Positions 1-55,864 of a stretch of DNA of 64,000 nucleotides are shown here, piece after piece. The stretch is from Oharaeibacter diazotrophicus (GTDB lineage Bacteria > Pseudomonadota > Alphaproteobacteria > Rhizobiales > Pleomorphomonadaceae). The notes beneath the pieces are model-generated. The model worked only from the letters and a program-made list of their open reading frames with translations. It did not search any database and was not told the origin of the DNA. The stretch is taken from positions 434,001 to 498,000 of the forward strand of contig NZ_SNXY01000007.1 in NCBI RefSeq assembly GCF_004362745.1, read 5' to 3'. How positions within the stretch are numbered: position 1 is the first letter of the stretch; each line of letters opens with the position of its first letter. The translations under genes and the position numbers were made by a program.

Positions 1-3000
1 CGGCGGCGAGATCGGCGCGGTGGCGTTGGAAGATCGCCACGCCCCGCATGTTGCCGATGCGATTGCAGGTCTCCACGACCCGCCGGTATCCTTCCTCGGC
101 CGGCTCGAGGCTGCCGGAGATGTGGTTGCACAATGCCGCGTATCCGCCGGCGTAGGTGCGGGTCAGGCTGGGCGTGGTGCCGTCGCGATAGCCGGTGGCG
201 GCCAGGATCTGTTCGCAGAGCTTCGCCGCCTTGACGATGTTGCCGCGATCGATCTGCGCCGCGACCCAGTTGACGCCGATGCGCCGCTCCATCGCGTGAT
301 AGGAGGCGTCGTGCATGCGGGCACCGCGGGTGTGACGAACCACCTCGAAGGCGCGCTGGAAGTGCTGCACGGCGTCGAAGGTACGCCCCTGCACGTAGGA
401 GACCAGTCCGCGCTCGTTGAGCAGCCAAGCGATCTCGTCGGTGAAGAACGCCCGACGGATGGCCGGCGTGGCAACGGTCGAAGGCGGGTCACCGGGAGCA
501 GCCGTGATTTCCGCGCTCGCGAACGCATTCATCTCGCGGGCGCAATGGTCGATGCCGTTCGCCACGTTGACGAGACTGCGCAGCCAGTCACGGTACTCGT
601 CGAATGGTAAGCGACGTTCGCGTGCGCTCTCGGGCATGGCGATGCGGGCGACCGCGCTGATCGAGAAGCCCCCCCGCAGCATGCCGTAGATCGCGCGCAC
701 CGTCTGCTCGACCGCCTCGACGCGGGCCTTGTCGCCGGCGAAGCGCCGAATCTCAGGCGCGATGCGCCTGGGCAACTCGTAGAGCACGGCCGGCCTTGTC
801 GCCGCCTTGCCGCTCTTGCACTTGTAGAAGAAGCCGAGCGTGTCTCGGCACTGCGTCAGCCCGTTGCGCACGATGTCACGGACCCAGTCGAAGTGCTCGG
901 GCGTGGGCGTGGGCAGGTCCCTCGGTTGCGAGCAGTGCAGAGACACCTGGAAGTGGTTCCGCTCTCCGCCATCCGGTACGAAGAGCTTCATCTCGTGAGC
1001 GAGATGTTCGCGGATCTGGTCGTGGAGCACGTAGCGAAGGCGCGTCTCGGTGGCGCGCTCCGGTCCGCCGGCCGGTTCGATCGCGACGACGAGCCCGCGC
1101 CGAACGGGGACGTCCATCGCTTCGTGGATCCGGCGCAGCGGGCGCGCGGGATTGTCCGGCCCGAGGAACTCGAGCGGTGGAATCGCTTCCTCGATCCTGG
1201 GACAGCGCAGCAGCGGCAAGATCTCGACGGGTGTCACGAACAACACCAGATGGCGCATGATCTGCTGCCGCAGGTTCGCCAGGTCCCTGCCGGTGCCGTC
1301 CAGGCAGTCGCCGCGGTGCCATTCGCGCAGGAGATACCGCAGCACGCCGTGCAGGCCGTCGCCTCCGGCGGCGCCTTCGAGGTCTCCTACGTATCTGCCG
1401 AGTTCGGCCACGGCCTCGTCGAGCGGTTCGCCCGACGGGCGTATGGGGGCAACTCGCTGAACTCTTTCGGTATAGTACCGAAAGCACCACATGGTGAGAG
1501 CCGTGCTCTGCTCGATTGCACGCTGAATGGAGAGGCGGCCGTGGAAGGGACCGTCGTGGTCCTTCAGCGAGCGATCGGCCTGTTGTTGCAGGAACGTCCC
1601 GATGGCTTCGATCCTGCTGCCATCACCGGTCGTCGTGATCGGAGCCGTAGCCACCAACAATTTGATCTTGTCGCGGAAGGTGAGCCGCGGGAGGATCGTC
1701 CACGGCTTCCAGGCCTTTCCGGTGGCGCTGACGGTGTGTTCACCCGGGCTCCCCGGCTCCGAGAGATACGCCAAGGACGGGTCGACACTCCCCGACACCA
1801 GCACGAGATCGATCGGCCAGTCTCCGCCCTGGACCTGCCCGGTGATCAGCCGGAAGAAGGCGCGGTGAGCGGGGCTGTAGCCGTCGCCGTGCTCGTCGCA
1901 CAGGCGGTCCAGTCCGGCCAGACAGACGAACAGCCGGTCCTCCGATCGGGCGCCCTTGGCGTGCTCCCGCAGCAGCAGCTCGAGGATCTCCAGGCGATGG
2001 GGATGGCCGCCGAGTTCGGCGGGATCGACGGCGGTGAGAACCGACTGCGGCCGCTCCTCGGCGATCGCGATCGCGATCGCGGCCTCGCGGACGGCGAGAT
2101 CCCTGCTCCGGTGCCACGCGATGCGTCCCGCGACGAACGACGACAGGGCGCTGATCACCGACGAGAACTGCGTGCCGAACGCGGTGGTCGCGATGAAGGC
2201 GCCCGCGTACCCGACGCCGCGCCGATCGAACAGCTCTCGCTGTACGGAGCGGTCCTGCAGCAACGCCACCAGCGTTCCACGGCCCGAACCACGGCGCATC
2301 GCGAGGCGCATCACGCGAAGACGCGGCGTCGCGGGCTGTCCCCCGGGGTGTCGCGCGATCTTGCGGCGTGCGGCGAGGAGCGGCCGCCTCCACGTCAGGA
2401 AGTCCCAGATCGATTTCGAGAACATGGAACGCTCCGACGAACCCGTCGCCGGGGCAGGAGCGAGGCGGGGGGCGAATCGGACCCATACGGGATGGGTCCA
2501 AGGTCCGACGCGCCCGTCCTCGGATTTGTCTTCAGGCCGCTGGTGATAGACGGGGCGACGCTGACGCGGCACGACCCGCCACTCGTCCCACCATTGCCTT
2601 CGCTTGACGTCGATGCGGGAGATCTCGTGGATCAATGCACGCGCCTGCATGCGGCCGTTGATCGTGCCGAGAACCAAGTGAAGCAATTTCTTTTGAATTT
2701 CCGCGGCAGCCGCTGTGCTTCCGGTCAAGTTCGCGATTGAATTCTTGATTGTCTCGACCTCATCGCCGCTTACAGTGGTTGTTTTCAGCTTTTTACCGGT
2801 TGCGTGACTGTCGGTGGTGTACTCAATAATTTTGTCTAGATTCTTGTCATTCCTGATGTAATCATTGAAATAGGCGCGAATCATCTTGTACTGATTGTCA
2901 TGGGCGCCATAGAAAATCGTATGGATGTCGTACTTCAGCTTCAGCTCGAGCGCCTTCTTGACGTCCTCCTCGCTCGGGGAATTGCCCGCCGCCGCCCACT

Positions 3001-4207
3001 CCGCTTCGCTGGCGTCGGCCGCGACCGGGGCCGTCGCCTCCAAGAGCGCGAAGCTCTGCCGGGCCTCGCCGCGGGCAAGTTGCTCGCGCGTCATGTAGAG
3101 GCGCAGCACGCCGAGGACGTCGGCCTCGTCCATGCCGGTGCCCACGAACAGGACGTCGTTTCCGGCGAACAGCACCTGCCGGGCGTCGCGGAGCATGTGG
3201 CCGGCGACGTCGTCCTTGACGTAGAGGCGCTTGTAGTCTGCTTCGGTCAGGATGAGACCTTCGGGACGATCCGCCCGGCCGTGAAGGTGCATCACGCCGC
3301 GACGGGCACGCCGGGGGTGGACGGAGAAGTTGACGAGGTCCGTCACGGTCCGGTCGTCGAGGGTGACGCTGACGCTGGGAACGTCGCCCGGATCGTGGGC
3401 GGTCGCGCGTCGCGCCGCCGCTCCGCGTTCCTCGGGACGGCCGACCAGACGGTCGAAGGTCTCGCCGGGCAGGTCGCGCGCGATGCGCCGCTCGATCTCG
3501 ACGTCGTAGTTCAACGTCACGAAGCGTTGCAGATCGAGGTCGAGCAGAGTGCCTAGCACATCGCAGCCGAGATCGCCGATCTCGACGGGCTTCGCGCTCC
3601 GTACCTCTGTTACGATGGCCCCCCAGTCGGTGGGCGTCGTCTTCATGAACGAGAAGGCCAAGTCGGCGAGGTCGACCAGCGACCTGTCGTCACGGTCCGC
3701 GTCGGCCGGATACTCGCCCGGCGTCACACCGAGCGCGCGCGCGATCCGGATCGCCGCGATCTTGCGCGGCGAGGCGAGCAGGCGCTCGGCGATGCGCGTG
3801 CGCGCCGATGCGCCGTCGCCGGACTTGGCGAGGATCATCTCGCACTGCTCGATGACGATCGTGAGCCGCCCGGTCAGTTTGCCCTCGTTGGCCGCCGTGA
3901 TCGCGATGCACGCGGTGTCATGGGCCCGGATCTGCGACGGCTGGGCGTTGAGCATGGTCGCCAGGGCGGCGACCTCGTCGCTCCATTGCAACGTCCCGTG
4001 CCGCCCCAACTGATCGCGCACCGCGTCCACCGCCACGGCGGCGAGCTCGGTCCAGGTCGGCTGGCCGTAGACGATGGACGCACCGGATCCGACGAAGGTG
4101 ACGAGGCGGCGGAGATTGAGGGCCCGTTGCAAGGCCATCCGCCCGTGCAACTCGATCGAGCGCACCGTCAGGGCCGGGTCCTCGTAGGGGTGTACGTGTG
4201 TCCACAT
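1..4207 (-). CDS. Giant SIR2-like / P-loop NTPase / TPR protein, partial (3' end outside window)
   Basis: The frame is open for 1402 codons from ATG at 4207 and leaves the left edge without a stop. Residues 38-44 read FVGSGAS followed by YGQPTW, the NAD-binding start of SIR2-like domains. Further SIR2 marks are LNYD at 232-235, HLHG at 307-310 with the usual catalytic His position, and FVGTGMDEAD at 354-363. Residues 638-645 (RRGSGRGT) sit after a beta strand like a Walker A, but with Arg for Lys. A hydrophobic strand ending AGLDRL near 760-769 resembles Walker B. The region near 1045-1070 looks like a winged helix, and from about 1260 to the edge there are TPR-like helical pairs. A GAGGGAGGG Shine-Dalgarno lies 8 nt upstream of the ATG. 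Family knowledge: SIR2 plus STAND NTPase plus TPR is typical of NAD-depleting anti-phage proteins (Avs5/DSR-like). That role here is inferred. Exact family is uncertain. Confidence 0.85.
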   Translation of the reverse strand, partial: MWTHVHPYEDPALTVRSIELHGRMALQRALNLRRLVTFVGSGASIVYGQPTWTELAAVAVDAVRDQLGRHGTLQWSDEVAALATMLNAQPSQIRAHDTACIAITAANEGKLTGRLTIVIEQCEMILAKSGDGASARTRIAERLLASPRKIAAIRIARALGVTPGEYPADADRDDRSLVDLADLAFSFMKTTPTDWGAIVTEVRSAKPVEIGDLGCDVLGTLLDLDLQRFVTLNYDVEIERRIARDLPGETFDRLVGRPEERGAAARRATAHDPGDVPSVSVTLDDRTVTDLVNFSVHPRRARRGVMHLHGRADRPEGLILTEADYKRLYVKDDVAGHMLRDARQVLFAGNDVLFVGTGMDEADVLGVLRLYMTREQLARGEARQSFALLEATAPVAADASEAEWAAAGNSPSEEDVKKALELKLKYDIHTIFYGAHDNQYKMIRAYFNDYIRNDKNLDKIIEYTTDSHATGKKLKTTTVSGDEVETIKNSIANLTGSTAAAAEIQKKLLHLVLGTINGRMQARALIHEISRIDVKRRQWWDEWRVVPRQRRPVYHQRPEDKSEDGRVGPWTHPVWVRFAPRLAPAPATGSSERSMFSKSIWDFLTWRRPLLAARRKIARHPGGQPATPRLRVMRLAMRRGSGRGTLVALLQDRSVQRELFDRRGVGYAGAFIATTAFGTQFSSVISALSSFVAGRIAWHRSRDLAVREAAIAIAIAEERPQSVLTAVDPAELGGHPHRLEILELLLREHAKGARSEDRLFVCLAGLDRLCDEHGDGYSPAHRAFFRLITGQVQGGDWPIDLVLVSGSVDPSLAYLSEPGSPGEHTVSATGKAWKPWTILPRLTFRDKIKLLVATAPITTTGDGSRIEAIGTFLQQQADRSLKDHDGPFHGRLSIQRAIEQSTALTMWCFRYYTERVQRVAPIRPSGEPLDEAVAELGRYVGDLEGAAGGDGLHGVLRYLLREWHRGDCLDGTGRDLANLRQQIMRHLVLFVTPVEILPLLRCPRIEEAIPPLEFLGPDNPARPLRRIHEAMDVPVRRGLVVAIEPAGGPERATETRLRYVLHDQIREHLAHEMKLFVPDGGERNHFQVSLHCSQPRDLPTPTPEHFDWVRDIVRNGLTQCRDTLGFFYKCKSGKAATRPAVLYELPRRIAPEIRRFAGDKARVEAVEQTVRAIYGMLRGGFSISAVARIAMPESARERRLPFDEYRDWLRSLVNVANGIDHCAREMNAFASAEITAAPGDPPSTVATPAIRRAFFTDEIAWLLNERGLVSYVQGRTFDAVQHFQRAFEVVRHTRGARMHDASYHAMERRIGVNWVAAQIDRGNIVKAAKLCEQILAATGYRDGTTPSLTRTYAGGYAALCNHISGSLEPAEEGYRRVVETCNRIGNMRGVAIFQRHRADLAA

Positions 4208-4235: not shown

Positions 4236-4264
4236 ATTGTCGATGCCTCTGTTCACACTGTCAA
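4236..4264 (-). promoter_or_regulatory. Sigma-70-like promoter of the SIR2 gene
   Basis: On the minus strand TTGACA (4264-4259) is followed after exactly 17 bp by GACAAT (4241-4236). A start site near 4229 would leave a leader of about 22 nt that holds the strong Shine-Dalgarno of the SIR2 gene. The -35 is a perfect match and the -10 matches at four of six positions. This suggests that the gene is transcribed independently of the phn operon upstream of it. Confidence 0.55.
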
Positions 4265-4308: not shown

Positions 4309-5472
4309 TCAGCTAACCCGGCGGCCCTGGCGCCAGGTTTCGCGGACGACCGGGTGACGGTCGATGAGGGCGACGCGGACGAGGTCGGCGCGCAGGCCCT
4401 CGGCGATGGCGCCGCGGTCGGAAAGGCTGGTGGCGCGGGCGGGGGTGAGCGAGACGGTGCGGATCGCGCCCGGCAGGCCGCCGAGGGCGGGGACGCCGGC
4501 GAGCGCGAACGCGCCCTCGACGAGGCTGACCGGCACGTAGTCGGACGAGAGGATGTCGAGGAGGCCCGCCTCGGCGAGCTCGACCGCCGAGACGTTGCCG
4601 GAGTGCGAGCCGCCGCGCACCACGTTGGGCGCGCCCATCAGCACGGCGAGGCCGGCCATGTGCGAGGCCTCGGCCGCCTCGAGCGTGGTCGGGAACTCGG
4701 CGATGGCGACGCGGTCGGCGAGGGATTCCGCCACGTGGTCCTCGGTGGTGTCGTCGTGGCTGGCGAGCGCGACGTCGCGCCCGTGCGCCATCCGGACCAG
4801 GGCGCGGCGGTGCTCGGCGCCGTGGGCGTCGTGGAGGGCGCGGCGCTTGTCGATGAAGCGGTCGAGCTCGGCCTCGCTCATGGTGCTCTTGCCGCGGTAA
4901 TAGTCGCGCAGCTTGACGATGTCGCGGAACTGGCGCTGGCCGGGCGTGTGGTCCATCAGCGACATCAGCCGCACGTCGAAGCGGGCGAGGAAGCCCTCGG
5001 CCTCGGTCAGCACGTCCTCCGAGCAGATCTCGCAGCGCAGGTGGGTGTGGTGGTCGACGCGCAGGAGACCGGTGCCCTTGGCCGCCTCGATCGCCTCGCC
5101 GAGCGCGAGCAGCCCGGCGCCGAGCGAGCGGCGGTCGCCGTCGGAGCCGGCGCGCAGGCTGTCGAACACGGTGGTGATGCCCGAGGCGGCGATCTGGGCG
5201 TCGTAGGCGAACACGGCCGACAGCGGTTTCCAGGTCACCTTCGGACGCGGCGTGTAGTGCGGCTCGAGATGGTCGGTGTGCAGCTCGACGAGGCCGGGGA
5301 TCAGAACGTCGTCGCCGCAGTCGATCGCGTCGGGATCGAAGCGGTCCTCGTCGATGCCGACGATCAGGCCGCGCTCGACGTGGACGGTGCCGGCGGTCTC
5401 GCGGTCGGCGAGGACGATGCGGCGGGCGGAGAGGGCGACGGCGCCGCCGGCGTCGGGCAGGGGCTGCAGCAT
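4309..5472 (-). CDS. phnM: PhnM, alpha-D-ribose 1-methylphosphonate 5-triphosphate diphosphatase
   Basis: This 387-residue amidohydrolase removes pyrophosphate from ribose 1-methylphosphonate 5-triphosphate, giving the substrate of the C-P lyase PhnJ. The metal-binding motif VELHTDHLEPH lies near residues 62-72, the segment DHHTHLRCE near 139-147 and SHDDTTEDH near 242-250. All are typical of PhnM and length matches the family. It is the last phn gene present: it starts 12 bp after phnL, and no phnN or phnP follows. The next gene downstream is the unrelated SIR2 giant gene. Confidence 0.96.
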   Translation of the reverse strand: MLQPLPDAGGAVALSARRIVLADRETAGTVHVERGLIVGIDEDRFDPDAIDCGDDVLIPGLVELHTDHLEPHYTPRPKVTWKPLSAVFAYDAQIAASGITTVFDSLRAGSDGDRRSLGAGLLALGEAIEAAKGTGLLRVDHHTHLRCEICSEDVLTEAEGFLARFDVRLMSLMDHTPGQRQFRDIVKLRDYYRGKSTMSEAELDRFIDKRRALHDAHGAEHRRALVRMAHGRDVALASHDDTTEDHVAESLADRVAIAEFPTTLEAAEASHMAGLAVLMGAPNVVRGGSHSGNVSAVELAEAGLLDILSSDYVPVSLVEGAFALAGVPALGGLPGAIRTVSLTPARATSLSDRGAIAEGLRADLVRVALIDRHPVVRETWRQGRRVS

Positions 5473-5484
5473 GGGGGCGTTCCT

Positions 5485-6192
5485 TCAGGCGGCGATCGGC
5501 GCGGCGAAGCGGGTGACGTCGACGATGCGGTCGGCGACGCGGTCGCGGACGTCCTCGTCGTGGAAGATGCCGAGCATGGCGACGCCGCGGCGCTTCTTCT
5601 CGGCGATCAGCTCGACCACCGCGGCGCGGTTGCGGGCGTCGAGCGAGGCGGTCGGTTCGTCGAGCAGCAGGCAGGCGTGGTCGGCGACGAAGCCGCGGGC
5701 GATGTTGACGCGCTGCTGCTCGCCGCCCGAGAAGGTCGCCGGCGGCAGCGACCACAGCCGCTCCGGAACGTTGAGCCGGGCGAGGAGGTCGCGGGCGCGG
5801 GCCTCGGCCTCGCCCTCGGCGACGCCCTGGTCGCGGGCGGCGGCGGCGACGATGTCGAGCGCGCCGATGCGCGGGATGACGCGCAGGAACTGGCTGACGT
5901 AGCCGAGCGTGCGGCGCCGGAGCGCCACGATCCGGCGCGGCTCGGCAGTGGCGACGTCGACGGTCTCGTCGCCGTCGCGCACCAGGATGCGGCCGGCGTC
6001 GCAGCGGTAGTTGCCGTAGATCATCTTCAGGATCGACGACTTGCCGGCGCCGGACGGGCCGCCGAGCACGACGCACTCGCCGGCCCCGACCTCGAGGGCG
6101 ACGCCCCCGACCACCGGCAGGCGCTTGCCGCCCTGGAGATGCATGACGAAGGTCTTGCCGACGCCTTCGAGGGTGATCGCAGCGGCCGTCAT
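5485..6192 (-). CDS. phnL: PhnL, C-P lyase ABC-type ATPase subunit
   Basis: A 235-residue ABC ATPase with Walker [11 protein letters not shown] (about 44-53), signature FSGGEQQRV and Walker [10 protein letters not shown]. PhnL proteins resemble LolD/MacB-type ATPases but no membrane partner is encoded here; they act with the C-P lyase core rather than in transport. The N-terminal form, with [13 protein letters not shown] before the P-loop, is characteristic of PhnL. The gene lies 2 bp after phnK and 12 bp before phnM, so the three are surely one transcript. Its precise biochemical role in C-P bond cleavage is less well settled than that of PhnK. Confidence 0.95.
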
Positions 6193-6194
6193 GG

Positions 6195-6965
6195 TCAGAG
6201 CACCGAGGACACGAGGAGCTGGGTGTAGGGCTCGCGCGGATCGTCGAGCACCTGGTCGGTCAGACCGGTCTCGATCACGCGGCCCTGGCGCATCACCATG
6301 ATCCGGTGCGACAGCAGCCGGGCGACCGCGAGGTCGTGGGTGACGATGACGACGGCGAGGCCGAGGTCGGCGACGAGGCCGCGCACGAGGTCGAGCAGGC
6401 GGGCCTGCACCGAGACGTCGAGACCGCCGGTCGGCTCGTCCATGAAGACGAGGCGCGGGCTGGTGACGAGGTTGCGGGCGATCTGCAGGCGTTGGCGCAT
6501 GCCGCCGGAGAAGGCGCGCGGGGCGTCGTCGATGCGGCTCTCGTCGATCTCGACGCGGCCGAGCCAGTCGAGCGCGGTGTCGCGGATGCGGCCGTAGTGG
6601 CGCTCGCCGACGGCCATCAGCCGCTCGCCGACGTTGCCGCCGGCCGACACCGCCATGCGCAGGCCCTCGCGGGCGTCCTGGTGGACGAAGCCCCAGTCGG
6701 TGCGCATCAGGAGGCGCCGGCGCGCCTCGTCGAGGGCGAGCACGTCGCGCACCTCGCCGTCGCGCATCCGGTAGAGCACGGCGCCGGCGGTGGGGGCGAG
6801 GCGGGTCGACAGCACCGACAGCAGCGTCGACTTGCCCGAACCGGACTCGCCGACGATCGCCAGCACCTCGCCCTCGTAGAGGTCGAAGGAGACGTCGCGG
6901 CAGCCGACGCGCGGGCCGTAGAGCTTGGTGACGCCACGGGCGGAGAGGAGGGGCGTGTCGGTCAT
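6195..6965 (-). CDS. phnK: PhnK, C-P lyase ABC-type ATPase subunit
   Basis: A 256-residue ABC ATPase of oligopeptide-transporter type: Walker [10 protein letters not shown] (about 38-46), signature [14 protein letters not shown], Walker [13 protein letters not shown] and H-loop VTHDL. PhnK docks on PhnJ in the PhnGHIJ core, where ATP use is coupled to the catalytic cycle. No permease gene accompanies it, which fits PhnK rather than a Dpp/Opp importer. It starts 46 bp after the phnJ stop and is nearly contiguous with phnL. Confidence 0.95.
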
Positions 6966-7011
6966 GGGCGGGTGTTCCGGAGGGGAGCGGCGCGGGAGGC
7001 GGGCGTGGACG

Positions 7012-7920
7012 TCACGCTCCGACCGCCGCGGCGACGCCGAGTTCGCCGACGTGGCCGTCGGCGCGGCGGGTCTCGCAGTGGTCGGTGTCGGAGCAGACGA
7101 ACATCCGCCCGCCGCGGTCGTCGAGCACGACCTCGTCGAGATAGACGCCCTCGGCGCCGCAGAGCGCGCAGGGACGGTCGAACTTGTTGACCTCGAAGGG
7201 GTGGTCCTCGAAGTCGAGGCTGACCACCTCGGTGTGCGGCGGGATCGCGTAGATGCGCTTCTCGCGGCCGGCGCCGAACAGCTGCAGCGCGGCGCTCATG
7301 TGCATCTTCGGATTGTCGAACTTCGGCGTCGGCGAGGGATCCATCAGGTAGCGGCCGGCCACCGTCACCGGATAGGCGTAGGTGGTGGCGATGTGGCCGT
7401 GGCGGGCGATGTCCTCGTAGAGCTTGACGTGCATCAGCCCGTATTCCGCGAGCGCGTGCATGGTGCGCGTCTCGGTCTCGCGCGGCTCGAGGAAGCGCAG
7501 CGGCTCGGGGATCGGCACCTGGTAGACCAGGATCTGCCCGGCCGCGAGCGGCTGCTCGGGGATGCGGTGGCGGGTCTGGATCACGGTGGCCGCGCCGGTC
7601 GAAGTGGTGGTGGCGACGCCGGCGGTCTTCTCGAAGAACTTGCGGATCGACACCGCGTTGGTGGTGTCGTCCGAGCCCTGGTCGATCACCTTCAGCACGT
7701 CGTCGGGCCCGAGCACCGCCGCGGTGACCTGGACGCCGCCGGTGCCCCAGCCGTAGGGCATCGGCATCTCGCAGCTGGCGAAGGGCACCTGGTAACCCGG
7801 CACGGCGATCGCCTTCAGGATCGCGCGGCGGATCATCCGCTTGGTCTGCTCGTCGAGATAGGCGAAGTTGTAGCGGGCCTCGCGCTCCCGGATCTGCGCG
7901 GTTGTCGGCGACGCGGTCAT
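7012..7920 (-). CDS. phnJ: PhnJ, radical-SAM C-P lyase
   Basis: The catalytic subunit that cleaves the carbon-phosphorus bond of ribose 1-methylphosphonate 5-phosphate, giving methane (or another hydrocarbon) and a cyclic ribose phosphate. Four cysteines near the C-terminus (about C251, C254, C276, C282) have the spacing C-x2-C-x21-C-x5-C. This matches the E. coli enzyme, where three bind the 4Fe-4S cluster and one acts in catalysis. The protein is 302 residues when started at ATG 7918-7920, which overlaps the phnI stop as ATGA. The frame is open further upstream, but that stretch lies inside phnI and is rejected. Confidence 0.97.
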   Translation of the reverse strand: MTASPTTAQIREREARYNFAYLDEQTKRMIRRAILKAIAVPGYQVPFASCEMPMPYGWGTGGVQVTAAVLGPDDVLKVIDQGSDDTTNAVSIRKFFEKTAGVATTTSTGAATVIQTRHRIPEQPLAAGQILVYQVPIPEPLRFLEPRETETRTMHALAEYGLMHVKLYEDIARHGHIATTYAYPVTVAGRYLMDPSPTPKFDNPKMHMSAALQLFGAGREKRIYAIPPHTEVVSLDFEDHPFEVNKFDRPCALCGAEGVYLDEVVLDDRGGRMFVCSDTDHCETRRADGHVGELGVAAAVGA

Positions 7921-9026
7921 TCGGCGGCTTCCCCGATCTCGGCGGCCGCGGCGGCGCGGCGCTCGGCGTGTTCGCGGCGCATCTGGCGGACGAGGCCGAG
8001 CTCGGCCTGGAAGTCCACGTAGTGCGGCAGCTTGAGGTGCTCGACGAAGCCGGTCGCCTGGACGTTGTCGGCGTGCGAGAGCACGAACTCCTCGTCCTGG
8101 GCCGGGGCGCCGGTCTCCTCGCCGAGTTCGGCGGCGCGCAGAGCGCGATCGACGAGCGCCATCGACATCGCCTTGCGCTCGAGCTGGCCGAAGGCGAGGC
8201 CGTAGCCGCGGGTGAACTGCGGCGGCACCTCGGCCGAGCCGACGAACTGGTTGACCATCTCGCACTCGGTGACGCGGATGCGCCCGAGCGGCACGGCGAA
8301 GCCGACCTCCTCGGCGAAGAACTCGACCTCGACGTCGCCGATGCGGATCTCGCCGGCGAAGGCGTGGGTGCGGCCGTAGCCGCGCTGGGTCGAATAGCCG
8401 AGCGCGAGCACGAAGCCCTCGTCGCCGCGCGCCAGCGTCTGCAGGCGGACATCCCGGCCGGCCGGGAAGGCTAGCGGCTCGCGGGTGAGGTCGCCCGGCT
8501 CGCCCGCATCGGCGGGATCGCGGTTGCGCTCGATCAGGCCCTCGCCGTCGAGGAGGGCGGTGACGTGCGGCGCCGGCTCGAGCGGCGTCGGCGCGACCGC
8601 CGGGGCGGCGGGTGCGCCGCTCTCGGCGAGGTCGAAGTCGACGAGGCGGTGGGTGTAGTCGAAGGTCGGCCCGAGCACCTGCCCGCCGGGCAGGTCCTTG
8701 TAGGTCGCCGAGACCCGGCGCACCACGTCCATCCGGCCGGTGTCGAGCGGTTCGGAATAGCCGAAGCGCGGCAGCGTGGTGCGGTAGGCGCGGGTGAGGA
8801 AGATCGCCTCGATCAGATCGCCGCGCGCCTGCTTGATCGCGATCGACGCGATGCCGGGATCGTAGAGCGAGCCCTCGGCCATGACGCGGTCGACGGCGAG
8901 CGTCAGCTGGCCGCGGATCTGGTCGGTGCCGAGCTCGGGCACGGCGGGATCGCCGCGGCGCTCGTGGGCGAGCAGGCGGTGGGCCGCCTCGATCGCCTTC
9001 TCCCCGCCCTTGACGGCGACGTACAT
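7917..9026 (-). CDS. phnI: PhnI, nucleosidase subunit of the C-P lyase core
   Basis: A 369-residue protein that forms the PhnGHI(J) core. With PhnG and PhnH it displaces adenine from ATP by methylphosphonate to give the ribose 1-phosphonate triphosphate; PhnI alone has nucleosidase activity in E. coli. The start MYVAVKGGEKAIEAAH and the internal LPRFGYSEPLDTGRMDVVRRVS segment are family hallmarks. It follows phnH by 10 bp and overlaps phnJ by 4 bp, indicating translational coupling. It is of normal length and intact. Confidence 0.97.
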   Translation of the reverse strand: MYVAVKGGEKAIEAAHRLLAHERRGDPAVPELGTDQIRGQLTLAVDRVMAEGSLYDPGIASIAIKQARGDLIEAIFLTRAYRTTLPRFGYSEPLDTGRMDVVRRVSATYKDLPGGQVLGPTFDYTHRLVDFDLAESGAPAAPAVAPTPLEPAPHVTALLDGEGLIERNRDPADAGEPGDLTREPLAFPAGRDVRLQTLARGDEGFVLALGYSTQRGYGRTHAFAGEIRIGDVEVEFFAEEVGFAVPLGRIRVTECEMVNQFVGSAEVPPQFTRGYGLAFGQLERKAMSMALVDRALRAAELGEETGAPAQDEEFVLSHADNVQATGFVEHLKLPHYVDFQAELGLVRQMRREHAERRAAAAAEIGEAAE

Positions 9027-9036
9027 CGGAGCCTCC

Positions 9037-9627
9037 TCAGAGCGTGACGGTGGTCGAGCGCGGCAGGCCGACGACGGCGTCCGGCGCGGCGAGCACGAGG
9101 TCGACCCCGCGCGGGAACAGGGCGCGGTTGGCGGCGAGCGCCGGGACGAGCGCGGACGGCAGCGGATCGATGCCGAGCCGACGGGTGCCGGGCACGCCCG
9201 GGCCGGCGAGGGTCAGCGGACCGTCCGCGGCGAGGGCGTCGACCTGGAGGATCAGCGTCGCCGAGCGGTCGGGATAGTCGAACGTGCCGATCGCGAGGCC
9301 CTCGAGGCCGGCGAAGCCGGCGGCGTCGGCGATCACGAAGGCCGCGCGCCCGGTGTCGGAAACGACGGCGGCGCCGGTGTGGAAGCGCAGGAAGGCGGCG
9401 GCCGCATCGGAGGCGAGGCCCGGGGCGAGGGCGATCGGCGTCTCGTAATCGGCGAGCGCCAGCGCGATCGCGGCGGCGGTGGCCGACAGCGGCGCCGGCG
9501 GCGTCGGCAGGTCGGCGAGCGCGACGATCCGGCCTGGCTCGGCGAGCGCGGACATCACGGCGCGGAAGACGCGCTGGGCGTCGTCGACGGGGGCGGGAAA
9601 GCCCGGCAGGGGCTGGACGGCTGACAT
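9037..9627 (-). CDS. phnH: PhnH, C-P lyase core subunit
   Basis: A 196-residue protein matching PhnH, a PLP-transferase-like fold that does not bind PLP and serves as a structural subunit of PhnGHIJ. The N-terminal PGFPAPVDDAQRVFRAVMSALAEPGRIV is the characteristic opening (split here as PGFPAPVDDAQRVF then RAVMSALAEPG). The C-terminal FPRGVDLVLAAPDAVVGLPR also fits. It lies between phnG (15 bp gap) and phnI (10 bp gap) in the standard gene order. Confidence 0.95.
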   Translation of the reverse strand: MSAVQPLPGFPAPVDDAQRVFRAVMSALAEPGRIVALADLPTPPAPLSATAAAIALALADYETPIALAPGLASDAAAAFLRFHTGAAVVSDTGRAAFVIADAAGFAGLEGLAIGTFDYPDRSATLILQVDALAADGPLTLAGPGVPGTRRLGIDPLPSALVPALAANRALFPRGVDLVLAAPDAVVGLPRSTTVTL

Positions 9628-9642
9628 GGCGTTCGGATCCGG

Positions 9643-10107
9643 TCAGTCCACGTCGCCGCGGACCATGGTGAAGAAGTCGACGCGGGTGGCGGCGGCGCGG
9701 CGCGAGGCGTCGTCGCGGTCGGCGGCGAGGCGGGCCTCGACCGGGGCGACCAGCGCCGCCTCGACGGCGGGCCGGCGGGCAGGGTCCTGCCAGAGCGCGT
9801 CGGCGATGGCGGCGAGGCGGGCGGCGCCGGTGTCGCGGCCGAGGCGGTAGGCATGGCCGACGAGGCCGCCGACCGTGACGGAGGCGCGGGCGACCGAGGC
9901 TTCGCCGAGGTTGAAGGCCGGGCCGTCGCCGCCGATCCGCCCGCGCACCATCACGAGGCCGGCCTCGGGGCGGCGGAGGTCCGTGGCGGCGGTCTCGCCG
10001 AGGATGGCGTCGAGCGCGCCGGCGAGTTCGTCGGCGGTGGCCTCGGCGAAGGCCGCCATGGCGCGGCGGCGGGCGGTCACGTCGGGGGCGATACGGGACT
10101 CTGGCAT
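9643..10107 (-). CDS. phnG: PhnG, C-P lyase core subunit
   Basis: A 154-residue protein with the PhnG features: an N-terminal helix RRRAMAAFAEATADELAGAL, the strand-turn segment GLVMVRGRIGGDGPAFNLGE, and a C-terminal TRVDFFTMVRGD. PhnG is needed with PhnH and PhnI to transfer methylphosphonate to the ribose of ATP. It is the first core gene after the transporter genes, 67 bp downstream of the second phnE. No regulator gene of PhnF type lies between phnE and phnG, unlike in E. coli. Confidence 0.94.
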   Translation of the reverse strand: MPESRIAPDVTARRRAMAAFAEATADELAGALDAILGETAATDLRRPEAGLVMVRGRIGGDGPAFNLGEASVARASVTVGGLVGHAYRLGRDTGAARLAAIADALWQDPARRPAVEAALVAPVEARLAADRDDASRRAAATRVDFFTMVRGDVD

Positions 10108-10174
10108 GGCTCTCCGGCTCCGGGCCGCCTGTTTCGCCGGCTCCGATGACGCTGTGATGAAGGCGGGCGGGAAG

Positions 10175-11041
10175 TCAGTGAGCCGGCTTACCGATCACCG
10201 CGAAGCGGATGCGGCTCGACACAAGGTCGATCACGGTGACCACGACGAGGATCATCAGCACGAGGAAGGCGACCTGCTGAAGTTCGAGCGTGCGGATCGC
10301 CTCGGCGAGCGGAATGCCGATGCCGCCGGCGCCGACGATGCCGATGATGGTGGCCGAGCGGGTGTTGGATTCGAAGTAGTAGAGCACCTGGCTGACCATC
10401 ACCGGCACGATCTGCGGCAGGATGCCGAAGCGGTGGCCAGCGAGGCGCGAGCCGCCGGCGGAGATCACGCCCTCGACCGGCCGGCGGTCGGCGGTCTCGA
10501 TCGCCTCGGAGAACAGCTTGCCGAAGGCGCCGATGTCCGAGCAGATGATCGCCAGCACGCCGGCGAACGGACCGAGGCCGACCACGCTCACCCAGATCAG
10601 CGCCCAGATCAGCGTGTCGACGCCGCGCAGCGTGTCGAGGAAGCGGCGGACGCCGACGTGGACGAACACGTTGGGAATGACGTTGCGGGCGGCGAGGAAG
10701 CCGAAGGGGAAGGCTATGATCGCCGCGACCAGCGTGCCGAGATAGGCGATGCCGACGGTCTCGGCCATCGCCTGGAGATAGGTCCAGAGATAGCGGTCCG
10801 GCGAGGGCGGGATCATCAGCACCAGGAAACCGCCGAGGCGGCCGACGCCGTTCCAGATCGCCAGGATCGAAAAGTCGAGATACCAGAGCGCGAAGGCGGC
10901 GAGGCCGACCACGGCGGCGGCCGCGGCGGCGCCGAGCACGAGCCTGCGGCGGTCGTCGAAGGCGGCCGGATGGGCGGCGCGCAGGCGGTCGAGGTTCTCG
11001 GCGGCGAGGGCGGCGAGCGGAGAGGTGGCGGCGGCGGTCAT
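10175..11041 (-). CDS. phnE: PhnE-type phosphonate ABC permease (second copy)
   Basis: A 288-residue inner-membrane permease with about six helices and the cytoplasmic coupling segment RPVEGVISAGGSRLAGHRFGILPQ (positions about 195-218, split motif RPVEG and GHRFGILPQ). It pairs with the other PhnE to form the transport channel powered by PhnC. ATG 11039-11041 overlaps the stop of the upstream phnE as ATGA, so the two are translationally coupled. The frame stays open further upstream, inside the other phnE, and that extension is rejected. Confidence 0.95.
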   Translation of the reverse strand: MTAAATSPLAALAAENLDRLRAAHPAAFDDRRRLVLGAAAAAAVVGLAAFALWYLDFSILAIWNGVGRLGGFLVLMIPPSPDRYLWTYLQAMAETVGIAYLGTLVAAIIAFPFGFLAARNVIPNVFVHVGVRRFLDTLRGVDTLIWALIWVSVVGLGPFAGVLAIICSDIGAFGKLFSEAIETADRRPVEGVISAGGSRLAGHRFGILPQIVPVMVSQVLYYFESNTRSATIIGIVGAGGIGIPLAEAIRTLELQQVAFLVLMILVVVTVIDLVSSRIRFAVIGKPAH

Positions 11042-11922
11042 CGGGCGCGTCCCTCGAGGCCGATCAGGTGGTGGCGCAGCTTCTCGGTGAGGAAGTCGAT
11101 CGCCATCACCGTGGCGACGATCAGGATCAGGAGGGCGCTGACGTCGGGGTAGTAGAACTGGCGGATCGAGGTCACGAGGTCCTCGCCGATGCCGCCGGCG
11201 CCGACGAACCCCATCACCGCGCTCTCGCGGACGTTGATCTCGAAGCGCAGCAGCGTGTAGCTGGCGAAGCCCGGCAACACCTGCGGCAGCACGGCGAAGC
11301 GGACCCGGGCGAGCCAGGAGCCGCCGGCGGCGGCGACACCCTCGACCGGCTTCATGTCGACGTTCTCGACCACCTCGGCGTAGAGCTTGGCGAGCGCGCC
11401 GGCGGTGTGCAGCGCCACGGCGAACACGCCGGGCATCGGCCCGAGGCCGAAGGCGATCACGAACAGGAGCGCGAACACGACGCCCGGCACGGTGCGCAGC
11501 AGTTCCATGGTGCGGCGCACGAGGAAGCGCGAGGTCGGGTTCGGGTTGAGGTTGGCGGCGGCGAGGAAGGAGAGGGCGAAGCCGACGACGGCGCCCATCA
11601 GCGTGCCGAGATAGGCGATCAGCAGCGTCTCGGCGAGCAGCGACAGCCAGTGCGGCAGGTTCCAGTACCAGGCCGCAAGGCTCTGGAACGGCGTCGCCCA
11701 GGAGAACTCGGGCGTGATCCGGCCGAGGTAGCTGGTGAAGCGCCAGAGGTTGGTCGCGAAGGTGCCGATCCGGACCTCGGCGGCCCATCCGGCCACCAGA
11801 GCGAGGAGGACGACCGCGGTGAGGCCGACGAGGAGGCGGATGCGGCGGGCGCGCACGGTGGCGGCGTAGCCGCTCGCGAGGCTGACGCGCTGCGCGTCGG
11901 GCAGCACCGGGACGAGGCTCAA
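11038..11922 (-). CDS. phnE: PhnE-type phosphonate ABC permease (first copy)
   Basis: A 294-residue membrane permease. One helix lies near residues 29-48 (LLVGLTAVVLLALVAGW) and several more follow, with the coupling motif KPVEGVAAAGG before VRFAVLPQV. Tandem phnE genes are common in alphaproteobacteria, and the two products probably form a heterodimer. It starts 73 bp after phnD. It has typical length and shows no sign of decay. Confidence 0.95.
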   Translation of the reverse strand: MSLVPVLPDAQRVSLASGYAATVRARRIRLLVGLTAVVLLALVAGWAAEVRIGTFATNLWRFTSYLGRITPEFSWATPFQSLAAWYWNLPHWLSLLAETLLIAYLGTLMGAVVGFALSFLAAANLNPNPTSRFLVRRTMELLRTVPGVVFALLFVIAFGLGPMPGVFAVALHTAGALAKLYAEVVENVDMKPVEGVAAAGGSWLARVRFAVLPQVLPGFASYTLLRFEINVRESAVMGFVGAGGIGEDLVTSIRQFYYPDVSALLILIVATVMAIDFLTEKLRHHLIGLEGRAR

Positions 11923-11995
11923 GGCGGCGGCTCCTGGAAAGGGGCCGGGGCCGGATCCCGCGCGCGGCGGAACCCGGCCCCGGTGAAGGCCTGCG

Positions 11996-12931
11996 TCAGG
12001 ACTTGCGGGCGGCGTCGTTGAACTTGACCATCTCGATGATCGGGTCGAACGCGGCGCGGTCGATCCCGACGAACTCCTTGTCCTTGCCGTCGGACAGGGC
12101 GGCGTAGCCCTTCGGATCCTTCGAGGGCATGTCGAGGAAGGCCTGCTTGATCTGGGCCTTGAGGTCCTCCGGCAGGGCGGAGAGCACCGAGAACGGGCCC
12201 TCGGGCAGGAAGTCCGACTTGAAGACGATGCGGAAGTCCTCCTTCTTCATCGGATTGCCGGCGGCGTCCTTGAGCACGCCCTTGGTGATCATCCGGGTGA
12301 GGTTGGAGTCGTCCTCGGAGTTCCAGGAGTTGGCGGCGGCGTCGGCCGTGCCCTGGGCGAGCGCCAGGACGGCGTTGTCGTGGCTGCCGGCGAAGAAGGA
12401 CTTGCCGAAGAAGGTGTCGACCGAGTAGCCGGCGCGGTCCAGGAAGAAGCGCGGGGCGTTGTTGCCGGAGGTCGAGTTCGGGTCGACCAGGGCGAGGGTC
12501 TTGCCGCGCAGGTCCTCGATGGTCTTGTAGGCGCTGTCGGCGCGGACGTAGACGACCGAGAAGTAGCCGGTCATGCCGTTCGAGTGGCGCGGCACGACGA
12601 GCGGGTCGAGCTCGACGCCGGTCATGACGGCGCGGGCGTAGGAGGCCGGGCCGTACATGGCGATCTGGGCGTTGCCGGCGCGCTGGGCCTCGATGACCGC
12701 GGCGTAGTCGTTGGCGACGCGCAGCGTGACCTTCACGCCGAGCTCCTTGGAGAGGTAGTCGGCGAGCGGGCCGTAGCGGTCGGTGGTGGTCGAGGCGTTC
12801 TCGGCCGGGATCACCGCCAGCGACAGCTCGGGATACTGGTCCTTCCAGCCCTCGGCGAAGGCGGCAGAGGCGGTGCCGGCGAGGGTGGCGGCCGCGACGG
12901 CGGCCACCACGAAGCTGCGACGATCGAGCAT
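11996..12931 (-). CDS. phnD: PhnD, periplasmic phosphonate-binding protein
   Basis: A 311-residue solute-binding protein with an N-terminal export signal. DRRSFVVAA followed by a hydrophobic stretch and an AFAEG cleavage region could be a Tat signal as well as a Sec signal. The mature part has the PhnD pattern: IPAENASTTTDRYGPLADYLSKE, then ANDYAAVIEAQ, and VDPNSTSGNNAPRFFL in the ligand cleft. It delivers phosphonates to PhnE/PhnC. It lies 45 bp after phnC, the usual order. Confidence 0.96.
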   Translation of the reverse strand: MLDRRSFVVAAVAAATLAGTASAAFAEGWKDQYPELSLAVIPAENASTTTDRYGPLADYLSKELGVKVTLRVANDYAAVIEAQRAGNAQIAMYGPASYARAVMTGVELDPLVVPRHSNGMTGYFSVVYVRADSAYKTIEDLRGKTLALVDPNSTSGNNAPRFFLDRAGYSVDTFFGKSFFAGSHDNAVLALAQGTADAAANSWNSEDDSNLTRMITKGVLKDAAGNPMKKEDFRIVFKSDFLPEGPFSVLSALPEDLKAQIKQAFLDMPSKDPKGYAALSDGKDKEFVGIDRAAFDPIIEMVKFNDAARKS

Positions 12932-54586: not shown

Positions 54587-55864
54587 ATGACCGGCGGGCG
54601 ACACTTGCGGACCGCCGCCTACGGCAAGGCGGACAGCGACCACGTCCGCCGTCAGAACCGTTCGCTGGTGCTGTCGACGCTCCGGCGCCTCGCGCCGATC
54701 GCCCGCGTCGACCTCGGCGTCGCCACCGGCCTGTCGCCTGCCACCATCACCGCCATCACCGCCGACCTGATCGCCGAGGGTCTCGTCGAGACCGTGCCGG
54801 ACGAGACCGCCGACCTCGACGACGCCCCCGCCCGCCGCGGTCGGCCGCGGGTGATGTTGCGGCTCGATCCGCGCGCCGCGCTGGTGCTCGGCGTCAAGCT
54901 CTCGACCAACCACGTCACGCTGCTGCTCGCCGATTTCGGCGGCACGCTCCGGGCCCGGCGCGACCTCTCGCCCCGCACGATCGACCGCGACCGCGACGGC
55001 TTCGGCGCCATGCTGGTCGAGCTCGTCGGCGGCTTCCTCGCCGAGGAGGGCGTGCCGGTCGAGCACCTCGCCGAGATCACCGTCGCCGCCCAGGGCTTCG
55101 TCGACACCCGCTCGGGCACGCTGATGTGGTCGCCGGCGGCACGGGAGCGCAACATCCCGATCGTCGCCCCGCTCGAGGCCGCGTTCGGGCGCAGCTGCAC
55201 CATCTCCAACGACGCCAACATGATCGCGCAGGCGCTCCACACCGTGGACCCCGCCACCTACGACGGCACCTTCGCGGTCGTGTTCGTCGACTACGGCGTC
55301 GGCATGGGCCTGTTCGTGGCCGGCCGCCTGCACCACGGTGCCGACGGTTCCGCCGCCGAGTTCGGCCACATGAACCACATGCCCGGTGGGCCGCTGTGCC
55401 GTTGCGGCCGGCGCGGCTGCCTCGAGGCCTTCACCGCCGACTACGCCATCGCCCGCGAGGCGCGCGGCCTGCCGCCCGACACCGACCCGCTGGTCGCCAG
55501 CCCGAGCGCCGGCGAACTCGCCGCCCTCGAGGCGGCCGCCCACGGCGGCGACGCCCGCCTCGCCGCGGTCTACGACGGCGTCGGCACCGCGCTCGGCTAC
55601 GGCCTCGCCCGGCTGATGGCGCTGGTCAACCCGAGCCGGATCGTGCTGACCGGTGCCTCGACCCGCGCCTATCCGCTGTTCCGGCCGGCGATGGAGGCGG
55701 CGATCGACGCCGCGCTGGTCGAGGACCTGCGCCGCTTCACCGTCGTCGAGGCGCTGCCCTGGGACCGCGACATGATCGCGACCGGGCTGATCTCCGACGC
55801 GCTGCGCCGGCTCGACCACGACGTCTTTTCGCAGGCCGTCAACGCCCGCCGCTTCCGCGCCTGA
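54587..55864 (+). CDS. xylR: ROK-family transcriptional repressor, XylR-like
   Basis: A 425-residue regulator with an N-terminal winged helix (NRSLVLSTLRRLAPIARVDLGVATGLSPATITAITADL, region about 23-60) and a sugar-kinase-like ROK domain. The ROK metal site is visible as HMNHMPGGPLCRCGRRGCLEAF (Cys cluster), but the kinase catalytic and ATP motifs are degenerate, as in repressors. Divergent placement to xylFHG supports xylose-responsive control. Confidence 0.9.
   Translation: MTGGRHLRTAAYGKADSDHVRRQNRSLVLSTLRRLAPIARVDLGVATGLSPATITAITADLIAEGLVETVPDETADLDDAPARRGRPRVMLRLDPRAALVLGVKLSTNHVTLLLADFGGTLRARRDLSPRTIDRDRDGFGAMLVELVGGFLAEEGVPVEHLAEITVAAQGFVDTRSGTLMWSPAARERNIPIVAPLEAAFGRSCTISNDANMIAQALHTVDPATYDGTFAVVFVDYGVGMGLFVAGRLHHGADGSAAEFGHMNHMPGGPLCRCGRRGCLEAFTADYAIAREARGLPPDTDPLVASPSAGELAALEAAAHGGDARLAAVYDGVGTALGYGLARLMALVNPSRIVLTGASTRAYPLFRPAMEAAIDAALVEDLRRFTVVEALPWDRDMIATGLISDALRRLDHDVFSQAVNARRFRA

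What the first reader, a model, noticed from the sequence alone, without database searches (positions are those of the whole stretch)
1..4207. Giant SIR2 / P-loop NTPase / TPR protein, a likely undescribed or rare anti-phage effector
Seen: one frame of at least 1402 codons with FVGSGAS, LNYD, HLHG and FVGTGMDEAD in the right order for a SIR2-like NADase, then a P-loop region, then TPR-like repeats. Known: SIR2 domains fused to STAND NTPases (Avs5) and DSR proteins cause abortive infection by NAD depletion. Inference: this is a defence protein, but the length (over 1400) and the 500-residue region between NTPase and TPRs make a simple match to Avs5 or DSR2 unclear.
Basis: partly seen in the sequence, partly recalled or inferred. 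Interest (0 to 1): 0.88.

Follow-up and report, generated by a model that had tools for sequence, protein, structure and literature searches.

The report
Giant NAD-cutting defence protein candidate
A bacterium carries a lone gene for a very large protein that joins an apparently working NAD-destroying enzyme to a worn-down molecular switch and a repeat tail; it most likely makes phage-infected cells shut down, and it belongs to a small, patchily spread family not recognised by the family libraries searched.

Summary
The full gene, recovered from the host genome, encodes 1578 residues. It has a SIR2_2 domain (Pfam E 2.8e-12) with the NAD-site Asn and His kept in 11 of 11 aligned rows, a P-loop-like region, a possible winged helix and MalT-like TPRs. 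The P-loop is degenerate: Arg replaces the Walker lysine here, and the first Walker B acid is absent in 11 of 11. Fold matches of a low-confidence model are P-loop ATPases, none significant.

Relatives (nine uninterrupted members of 1570-2439 aa, this one included) are rare and alphaproteobacterial (2/20 genomes in its family, 5/150 in its order); libraries recognise only their SIR2 and TPR parts. It fails tests for Avs5 (no nSTAND3) and DSR. In 3 of 12 carriers a homologous AAA ATPase lies beside it; that gene is rare elsewhere and absent from the window's genome.

Best reading: a STAND-like SIR2 NADase acting by abortive infection. That is inference: no phage test exists and no defence neighbour was recognised. 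New variant of a known kind.

The parts
1..4207 (-). Giant SIR2 / P-loop / TPR gene, 5' part (residues 1-1402 of 1578); the 3' end lies beyond the left edge (G000:C7:433471-434000)
4236..4264 (-). Sigma-70-like promoter match (TTGACA, 17 nt, GACAAT; 10 of 12) 28 bases upstream of the ATG; weak evidence
   Evidence: 1 found against 0.5 expected in shuffles
4076..4096 (-). FVGSGAS, SIR2 NAD-binding glycine motif, residues 38-44
3563..4051 (-). Variable insert inside the SIR2 domain, residues 53-215 (117-424 aa in 11 rows, 17% mean identity in 10): candidate sensor region
2990..3523 (-). Pfam SIR2_2 match, residues 229-406
   Evidence: E 2.8e-12
3503..3514 (-). LNYD (residues 232-235) of the TxNYD motif; catalytic Asn kept in 11 of 11 rows
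3278..3289 (-). HLHG with the catalytic His of the HG motif; HG kept in 11 of 11 rows
3119..3148 (-). FVGTGMDEAD, residues 354-363
2327..3091 (-). Variable linker between SIR2 and P-loop, residues 373-627 (159-450 aa, 19% mean identity)
2273..2293 (-). Degenerate Walker A, RGSGRGT, residues 639-645 (K in 6, R in 4, Q in 1 of 11 rows)
1901..1921 (-). Walker-B-like LAGLDRL, residues 763-769; first acidic position not acidic in 11 of 11
1787..1807 (-). Sensor-1-like strand LVLVSGS, residues 801-807
   Evidence: strand in the low-confidence model
1283..1789 (-). Variable region, residues 807-975 (127-425 aa, 15% mean identity)
983..1282 (-). Possible winged-helix region with RHLxLFxxPxxxxxL and RYxLHDxIRE, residues 976-1075; assignment by recalled motifs, no Pfam match
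2..442 (-). TPR array, in-window part (residues 1256-1402; the array runs to about 1560); nearly constant in length, 30% mean identity

Best explanation
A single-gene, STAND-like immune switch with a SIR2 NADase as effector. At rest the P-loop/winged-helix centre and the TPR tail hold the SIR2 domain silent. A phage-derived ligand (probably bound by one of the length-variable regions: the insert in the SIR2 domain, the linker, or residues 807-975) releases it, the protein assembles, the SIR2 domains destroy NAD+, and the infected cell stops before phage are made. Because the P-loop is degenerate in this copy, the switch probably works by nucleotide binding or by assembly alone rather than by ATP hydrolysis; in some relatives a separate AAA ATPase encoded next door may do the energy-dependent step. 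Shown: gene, SIR2 domain with its active-site residues, P-loop motif with only weak fold support, TPRs, patchy distribution, linked AAA gene in 3 carriers. Inferred: NAD loss, phage trigger, abortive infection, oligomerisation, which part senses.
For: SIR2_2 in 9 of 9 aligned members; TxNYD Asn and HG His kept in 11 of 11 rows. P-loop fold, weakly: for a model of residues 610-870 (pLDDT 49.9, pTM 0.57) the 50 listed Foldseek hits of 1120 are, by their descriptions, P-loop ATPases (best E 0.013), and VIA-align lists Orc/Cdc6 first (Z up to 8.8) with MalT 8bob (6.8), the NRC4 and NRC2 plant NLRs (6.7, 6.6) and Dark (6.1) among other AAA+ proteins. TPR_12 in 8 of 9 members. Sporadic occurrence: 2/20, 5/150 and 7/289 genomes (two of the 7 are weak TPR-only hits); two plasmid copies. 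GC3 0.845 here against 0.929-0.978 in 9 of 10 neighbours named by a family match and 0.861 in the tenth. No long neighbour shared among 11 loci except the AAA gene and common transporter or regulator types. The nearest experimentally studied architecture, Avs5 (SIR2-nSTAND3-repeats), hydrolyses NAD+ on phage infection (PMC12931631, passages and section 9 read).
Against: No experiment. No recognised defence gene beside it or its relatives among the neighbours tested. No PADLOC model covers more than part of the SIR2 domain, and NCBIfam gives no match. Avs5 needs its Walker lysine (PMC12931631), which this copy lacks, so the Avs5 mechanism cannot simply be carried over. In L026 GC3 does not differ from the neighbours. 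The NTPase assignment rests on motifs and a low-confidence model; profile comparison with nSTAND3 aligned only 26 P-loop columns (probability 2.4%, E 0.02, one comparison), not far from an internal control (TPR region, E 0.13). VIA-align's note says a best Z of 7-8 is typical for models without a clear match.
Confidence: 0.6

Rival explanations
1. It is a divergent Avs5: same phage-protein-triggered, ATP-dependent SIR2-STAND switch, only longer.
For: Same order of parts (SIR2, P-loop region, repeats); three tested Avs5 share only 18-21% identity with one another (PMC12931631), so weak similarity alone does not exclude it.
Against: PF20720 nSTAND3 is not detected in any of 9 members; Walker lysine replaced in 5 of 11 rows; the repeat tail is the steady part here (288-309 aa in 9 of 11 rows, plus 348 in G339 and 237 in the broken G671), whereas that paper describes the carboxy-terminal repeats of Avs5 as poorly conserved.
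Confidence: 0.15
2. A two-gene system: the degenerate STAND SIR2 protein is the effector and a separate AAA ATPase (AAA core, in one case with RyR) remodels or licenses it; the window's copy has lost or never had the partner.
For: Homologous AAA genes (31-32% identity, blastp E 3e-58 to 3e-74) directly beside the giant in Chthonobacter and G113 and, with an HTH gene and a transposase gene between, in Methylobacterium FF17; otherwise rare: 0 long matches in 289 class genomes, 2 further in 387 order genomes; the three lie in three separate branches. Parallel: MoxR AAA plus inactive STAND 'ternary' systems (PMC7159879, passages).
Against: Absent in 9 of 12 carriers, including the window's genome; also found without the giant nearby in G098, G059 and on a Streptomyces plasmid; loss of the lysine does not track with the partner (G113 keeps K); the label is no more structured on the tree than shuffled labels.
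Confidence: 0.15
3. Not defence: an NAD-dependent regulator or stress switch (STAND-TPR proteins such as MalT are regulators).
For: MalT-like TPRs and MalT among the fold matches; no defence neighbours; lies 101 bases downstream of phnM on the same strand, so it could be read together with the phosphonate genes.
Against: No DNA-binding domain found; other neighbours in the relatives; sporadic, in two cases plasmid-borne occurrence; a phnM relative is found in 14 of 20 family genomes, 12 of which lack this gene.
Confidence: 0.08

Closest known systems
Avs5 (AVAST type 5; SIR2-nSTAND3-repeats)
   Same: N-terminal SIR2_2 effector with GxGxS and TxNxD motifs, middle P-loop region, C-terminal repeats
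   Different: No nSTAND3 match, degenerate Walker A and B, longer (1578 aa; the passages place the PaAvs5 Foldseek match at residues 3-818), variability in inserts and linker rather than in the repeats; keeps HG, which Avs5 replaces by NG about as often as not (PMC12931631, passages)
DSR1/DSR2 defence-associated sirtuins
   Same: Large protein with N-terminal SIR2 NADase-type domain; PADLOC Dsr1 matches best at residues 302-368 (E 1.8e-6)
   Different: DSR proteins have no NTPase domain (recalled); here a P-loop region and MalT-like TPRs are present
SAMD9 family (animals and bacteria)
   Same: SIR2-like domain, STAND-like P-loop with a changed Walker lysine, TPR array (PMC5445408, parts 1-2 of 4 read)
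   Different: No AlbA_2 or OB-fold match; here the residue is K, R or Q, not G; the SIR2 catalytic residues are kept
MoxR-vWA-iSTAND ternary conflict systems
   Same: Inactive-looking STAND-like protein with an AAA ATPase gene linked in 3 carriers (PMC7159879, passages)
   Different: No vWA protein seen among the neighbours scanned; the AAA gene is mostly absent

Membership tests
SIR2_2 (PF13289) NADase-type domain | Profile match and catalytic Asn (TxNxD) and His (HG) | tested here: met
   E 2.8e-12, over the curated cut-off; Asn and HG kept in 11 of 11 rows
SIR2_2 (PF13289) NADase-type domain | NAD+ hydrolysis | not testable with these tools
   needs an assay
STAND NTPase | P-loop (AAA+/NB-ARC-like) core | tested here: inconclusive
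   motif present; fold matches are P-loop ATPases but the model is of low confidence and no hit is significant
STAND NTPase | Canonical Walker A lysine and Walker B acid | tested here: not met
   R in the window; first Walker B position not acidic in 11 of 11 rows, acid three residues later in 10 of 11
STAND NTPase | Winged-helix domain after the NTPase | tested here: inconclusive
   motifs by eye only; no Pfam match in the 3 members scanned
Avs5 | N-terminal SIR2 effector | tested here: met
Avs5 | nSTAND3 (PF20720) | tested here: not met
   0 of 9 full-length members at E up to 1; 0 of 9 NTPase regions at E up to 10; hhalign aligns only the P-loop
Avs5 | Working Walker A (GxxxxGK[ST]) | tested here: not met
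   GSGRGT
Avs5 | Recognition of a phage protein, NAD+ loss | not testable with these tools
   needs phage experiments
DSR1/DSR2 | SIR2 followed by a helical region without NTPase (recalled) | tested here: not met
   P-loop motif region and TPRs present; the Dsr1 model's best stretch is SIR2 only
SAMD9 family | AlbA_2 and OB-fold domains around SIR2-P-loop-TPR | tested here: not met
   no such Pfam match in 9 members at E up to 1; some SAMD9 members lack AlbA_2 (PMC5445408)
MoxR-vWA-iSTAND ternary system | Adjacent MoxR AAA and vWA genes | tested here: inconclusive
   AAA in 3 of 12 carriers (weak bpMoxR match in one); no vWA match in the 18 sequences scanned with Pfam, a part of the neighbours only

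The most novel reading that the evidence does not exclude
The giant and the AAA protein are the two halves of an undescribed NAD-depletion system in which a STAND module that has given up its own ATP hydrolysis is switched by a separate AAA ATPase (in one case fused to a RyR domain), and in which sensing has moved from the C-terminal repeats into inserts within the NADase; stand-alone copies such as the window's are self-sufficient or reduced versions.
Probability: 0.25. Interest if true: 0.7.

Novelty: new variant of a known kind. Interest (0 to 1): 0.5.

Why it matters
If it works as inferred, it adds a further architecture of large SIR2 defence proteins beside Avs5 and DSR. It would make a clean question testable: can a STAND immune switch run with a broken P-loop, as was suggested as possible for animal SAMD9 (PMC5445408), and does a separate AAA ATPase stand in for it? 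The natural K/R/Q series at the Walker lysine, with and without the AAA neighbour, is a ready-made comparison.

Tried and rejected
Filing as Avs5 (nSTAND3 not found) and as DSR. Structure of residues 600-1402 from a two-row alignment: pLDDT 40.5, not used further. Structure of 610-870: pLDDT 49.9, pTM 0.57, used only for the general P-loop fold. Phage records and viral contigs: no relative. C-terminal profile over 378 genomes of the phylum: 72 with matches; apart from the window's own genome only G671 is strong (E 9e-65); the best E of the other 70 is 8e-11 or weaker, and I read them as ordinary TPRs. nSTAND3 search, meant to find Avs5 proteins for comparison: 115 of 378 genomes over the cut-off; I read the frames behind 13 of the 25 loci returned and saw no SIR2 motif by eye, so no Avs5 sequence was at hand and no Avs5 tree could be built. 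PADLOC/NCBIfam: I did not check that these libraries hold an Avs5 model. A PfkB-like fold in the N-terminal half of the AAA partner was suspected by eye; Pfam gave no support in 6 proteins at E up to 5. An empty insertion site was sought by mapping the two flanking genes in the 20 family genomes: in the three other genomes that match both (G001, G003, G005) they lie on different contigs, so the site is not informative. hhalign of the NTPase region against E. coli MalT (first 472 residues), a Streptomyces NACHT-like protein and a CHAT/NB-ARC-like protein gave nothing (E 0.61, 0.087, 0.43). A link between lost Walker lysine and presence of the AAA partner fails: G113 has both lysine and partner. 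Literature: the searches and 123 of the open library showed no description of this family or of SIR2 with an RyR/AAA partner in their listings; most subscription papers and all preprints are not held.

Counting notes: of the 7 class genomes G251 and G172 are weak TPR-only hits and G198 is split over contig ends; these three were left out of the alignments. Nine rows (without Chthonobacter and G671) were used; Chthonobacter is the tenth row and G671, which lacks its 5' end, the eleventh from then on. Lengths are counted from the first possible start codon. PADLOC hits of the window's neighbours PhnL and PhnK (mad3 E 1.4e-24 and 1.7e-26, and others) were read as generic ATPase matches, since NCBIfam names both genes at E 1e-99 or better.
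Full report
WHAT IS THERE. Window 2-4207 holds an open frame of 1402 codons on the minus strand, starting at an ATG at 4207 and running off the left edge. Such a length is not chance: 300 Markov simulations of the same stretch gave at most 622 open codons. The window is G000:C7:434001-498000 of a 4.99 Mb genome, 99.96% complete; the whole gene is C7:433471-438207, 1578 residues. The next gene upstream, on the same strand and 101 bases away, is phnM, followed upstream by phnL, phnK, phnH, phnG and phnD; two further frames between phnK and phnH had no NCBIfam match. On the other side lie, on the opposite strand, a FAD/NAD oxidoreductase-like and a luciferase-like monooxygenase gene. A promoter-like match lies just upstream of the ATG (1 found, 0.5 expected), so it may have its own promoter or be read from the phn genes.

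DOMAINS. Pfam: SIR2_2 at 229-406 (E 2.8e-12), TPR_MalT at 1319-1437 (E 5.8e-9, below its cut-off), TPR_12 from 1258 (E 1e-5, below its cut-off). NCBIfam: none. PADLOC: LmuA and Dsr1 at E 1.8e-6, best stretches in the SIR2 part; across nine relatives ThsA models match 9 of 9 (best E 6.5e-8), again SIR2-type models. A single-sequence search of solved structures gives nothing better than E 0.9; the profile of nine relatives finds SIR2 and TPR proteins such as a USG protein (7uxt), KomC and kinesin light chain.

THE FAMILY. A relative over nearly the whole length lies in Chthonobacter albigriseus (42% identity in the best segment, 47% in the genome search). That copy is interrupted by one in-frame TGA, so it is either broken or misread; intact relatives exist elsewhere. 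tblastn on plasmids gave Azospirillum lipoferum 4B (1570 aa) and Methylobacterium sp. FF17 (2082 aa), both annotated only as 'SIR2 family protein'. Genome searches gave matches in 2 of 20 genomes of the family, 5 of 150 of the order and 7 of 289 of the class, the window's own genome included each time. In the class sample two of the 7 are weak TPR-only matches and one is split over contig ends. A profile of the C-terminal part over 378 genomes of the phylum added one clear member, G671, of the same class. The nine uninterrupted members with both ends, this one included, run from 1570 to 2439 aa. No relative was found in phage records or viral contigs.

WHAT IS CONSERVED AND WHAT VARIES. In the 11-row alignment the TxNxD Asn and the HG His are kept in 11 of 11, so the SIR2 domain is expected to be active; the GxG motif is altered in G339 and missing with the 5' end in G671. 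The TPR array is steady in length (288-309 aa in 9 of 11 rows; 348 in G339 and 237 in the broken G671) with 30% mean identity; the SIR2 core has 37%. Three regions vary widely: an insert inside the SIR2 domain (117-424 aa, 17%), the linker before the P-loop (159-450 aa, 19%) and residues 807-975 (127-425 aa, 15%). This is unlike Avs5, whose repeats are described as poorly conserved (PMC12931631 section 9). I infer that the variable regions, not the TPRs, are the likelier ligand-binding parts.

THE MIDDLE DOMAIN. The P-loop reads G-x-G-[K/R/Q]-G: K in 6, R in 4 (the window among them), Q in 1 of 11. The first acidic position of Walker B is not acidic in 11 of 11, while the position three residues later is acidic in 10 of 11. 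In 9 NTPase regions Pfam gives only single-member hits at E 0.04-0.05, among them NACHT and AAA_22. Profile comparison with ten nSTAND3 proteins aligns only the P-loop (26 columns, probability 2.4%, E 0.02); the internal controls in the same run gave E 0.13 (TPR region) and 0.47 (SIR2 region). A two-row AlphaFold model of 610-870 is poor (pLDDT 49.9, pTM 0.57) but has the expected strand-loop-helix order. The 50 listed of 1120 Foldseek hits are P-loop ATPases by their descriptions (best E 0.013). VIA-align places Orc/Cdc6 first (Z 8.8), with MalT, plant NLRs and Dark at Z 6.1-6.8 next to other AAA+ proteins such as TnsC, Sec18/NSF, BrxC and VCP; the tool notes that a best Z of 7-8 is typical of models without a clear match. 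So: most likely a P-loop domain, possibly STAND-like, with a compromised active site; this is not proven.

A LINKED AAA GENE. Beside the giant in Chthonobacter (L005:7761-9932, same strand, abutting), in G113 (L027:5090-7336, divergent, 147 bases away) and in Methylobacterium FF17 (L010:1567-4299, divergent, an HTH gene and a transposase gene between) lies a homologous AAA ATPase (31-32% identity over 577-643 residues, blastp E 3e-58 to 3e-74). The Methylobacterium one ends in an RyR domain (E 1.1e-14). Among 12 carriers searched (10 genomes, 2 plasmid records) the AAA gene occurs in these 3 and in no other; the window's genome has none. In 289 class genomes there is no long match (1 weak). 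In 387 order genomes 52 match, of which 4 are long: G001 and G113 (adjacent to the giant) and G098 and G059 (no relative of the giant in the 19.5 kb read); the other 48 are at E 2e-6 or weaker, those listed being short AAA-core matches. A further homologue sits on a Streptomyces plasmid with no SIR2 gene annotated in the 25 kb read. In an all-against-all comparison of neighbour frames from 11 loci, the AAA gene is the only long shared neighbour apart from common transporter and regulator types. On the tree of the giants the three AAA-linked members lie in three separate branches (three changes; shuffled labels give 2.8 on average, so the label is not clustered). Adjacency of two rare genes in three branches is hard to explain by chance, so a functional link is likely where both occur, but the partner is not obligatory.

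MOBILITY. GC3 of the gene is 0.845; nine of ten neighbours named by a family match have 0.929-0.978 and the tenth, whose start is uncertain, 0.861. In the frame lists of L005, L027, L039, L040 and L041 the giant is also below the recognisable neighbours that I picked by eye (for example 0.52 against 0.77-0.86 in L041), but not in L026. Two members are on plasmids with transposase genes close by, one (L040) ends 94 bases from a tRNA-His, and one (L025) has an integrase gene about 4 kb away. PADLOC scanning of 10 neighbours of relatives gave one weak hit, and of 10 neighbours of the window gene only generic ATPase and oxidoreductase hits. This fits a mobile, sporadically kept gene; it does not prove defence.

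MECHANISM. Best reading: phage ligand binding releases an inhibited, STAND-like assembly and the SIR2 domains destroy NAD+, as shown experimentally for Avs5 (PMC12931631, passages) and DSR2 (starts of abstracts in the listing). Shown here: domains, residues, conservation, distribution, linked gene. Inferred: everything dynamic. In Avs5, changing the Walker Gly362 or Lys363 abolishes defence; the Arg here makes ATP hydrolysis doubtful. SAMD9 proteins also carry a changed Walker lysine next to a SIR2-like domain and TPRs (PMC5445408, parts 1-2 of 4), and iSTAND systems pair an inactive STAND with a MoxR AAA (PMC7159879, passages); these are the nearest precedents.

VERDICT. A real, intact, probably horizontally acquired gene of a small unnamed family, most likely a SIR2-effector STAND-like defence protein; a new variant of a known kind, with an unexplained AAA partner in some relatives.

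Noticed in passing
L005:7761-9932 (+); L027:5090-7336 (-); L010:1567-4299 (-); L099:8307-10817 (-); L100:8394-10991 (-); L084:10831-12957 (+): A rare family of 708-910 aa proteins with a C-terminal AAA core (once with an RyR domain), three of them next to the giant SIR2 gene, three without; the N-terminal half has no convincing Pfam match.
   Followed up: partly
L106 (G000:C8 around 55069-55545, - strand): The window's own genome carries a strong nSTAND3 protein (766-codon frame, E 3.3e-46) whose N-terminus looks by eye like a restriction-type nuclease: a candidate Avs-like gene elsewhere in the same genome.
   Followed up: no
window 4309-12931: Phosphonate C-P lyase genes (phnM, L, K, H, G, D named by NCBIfam); a second phnM-like gene (54% identical) lies at G000:C10:216840-217961.
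   Followed up: partly
L005:12554-12556: The Chthonobacter copy of the giant gene is cut by a single in-frame stop in an otherwise open frame; broken gene or sequencing error.
   Followed up: no
L009:13760-16234 (+): Directly downstream of the Azospirillum giant is an 824 aa protein with hydrophobic N-terminal stretches and a GxSGG-like motif (patatin-like by eye); no Pfam or PADLOC match at E up to 0.01.
   Followed up: no
L085:2788-6747 (-) and 8425-9819 (+): Methylorubrum extorquens CM4 plasmid pCMU01 carries two SIR2 family proteins (1319 and 464 aa) separated by an IS5-like transposase gene and a small frame; the smaller one matches this family only in the SIR2 part, the larger one not at all.
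   Followed up: no
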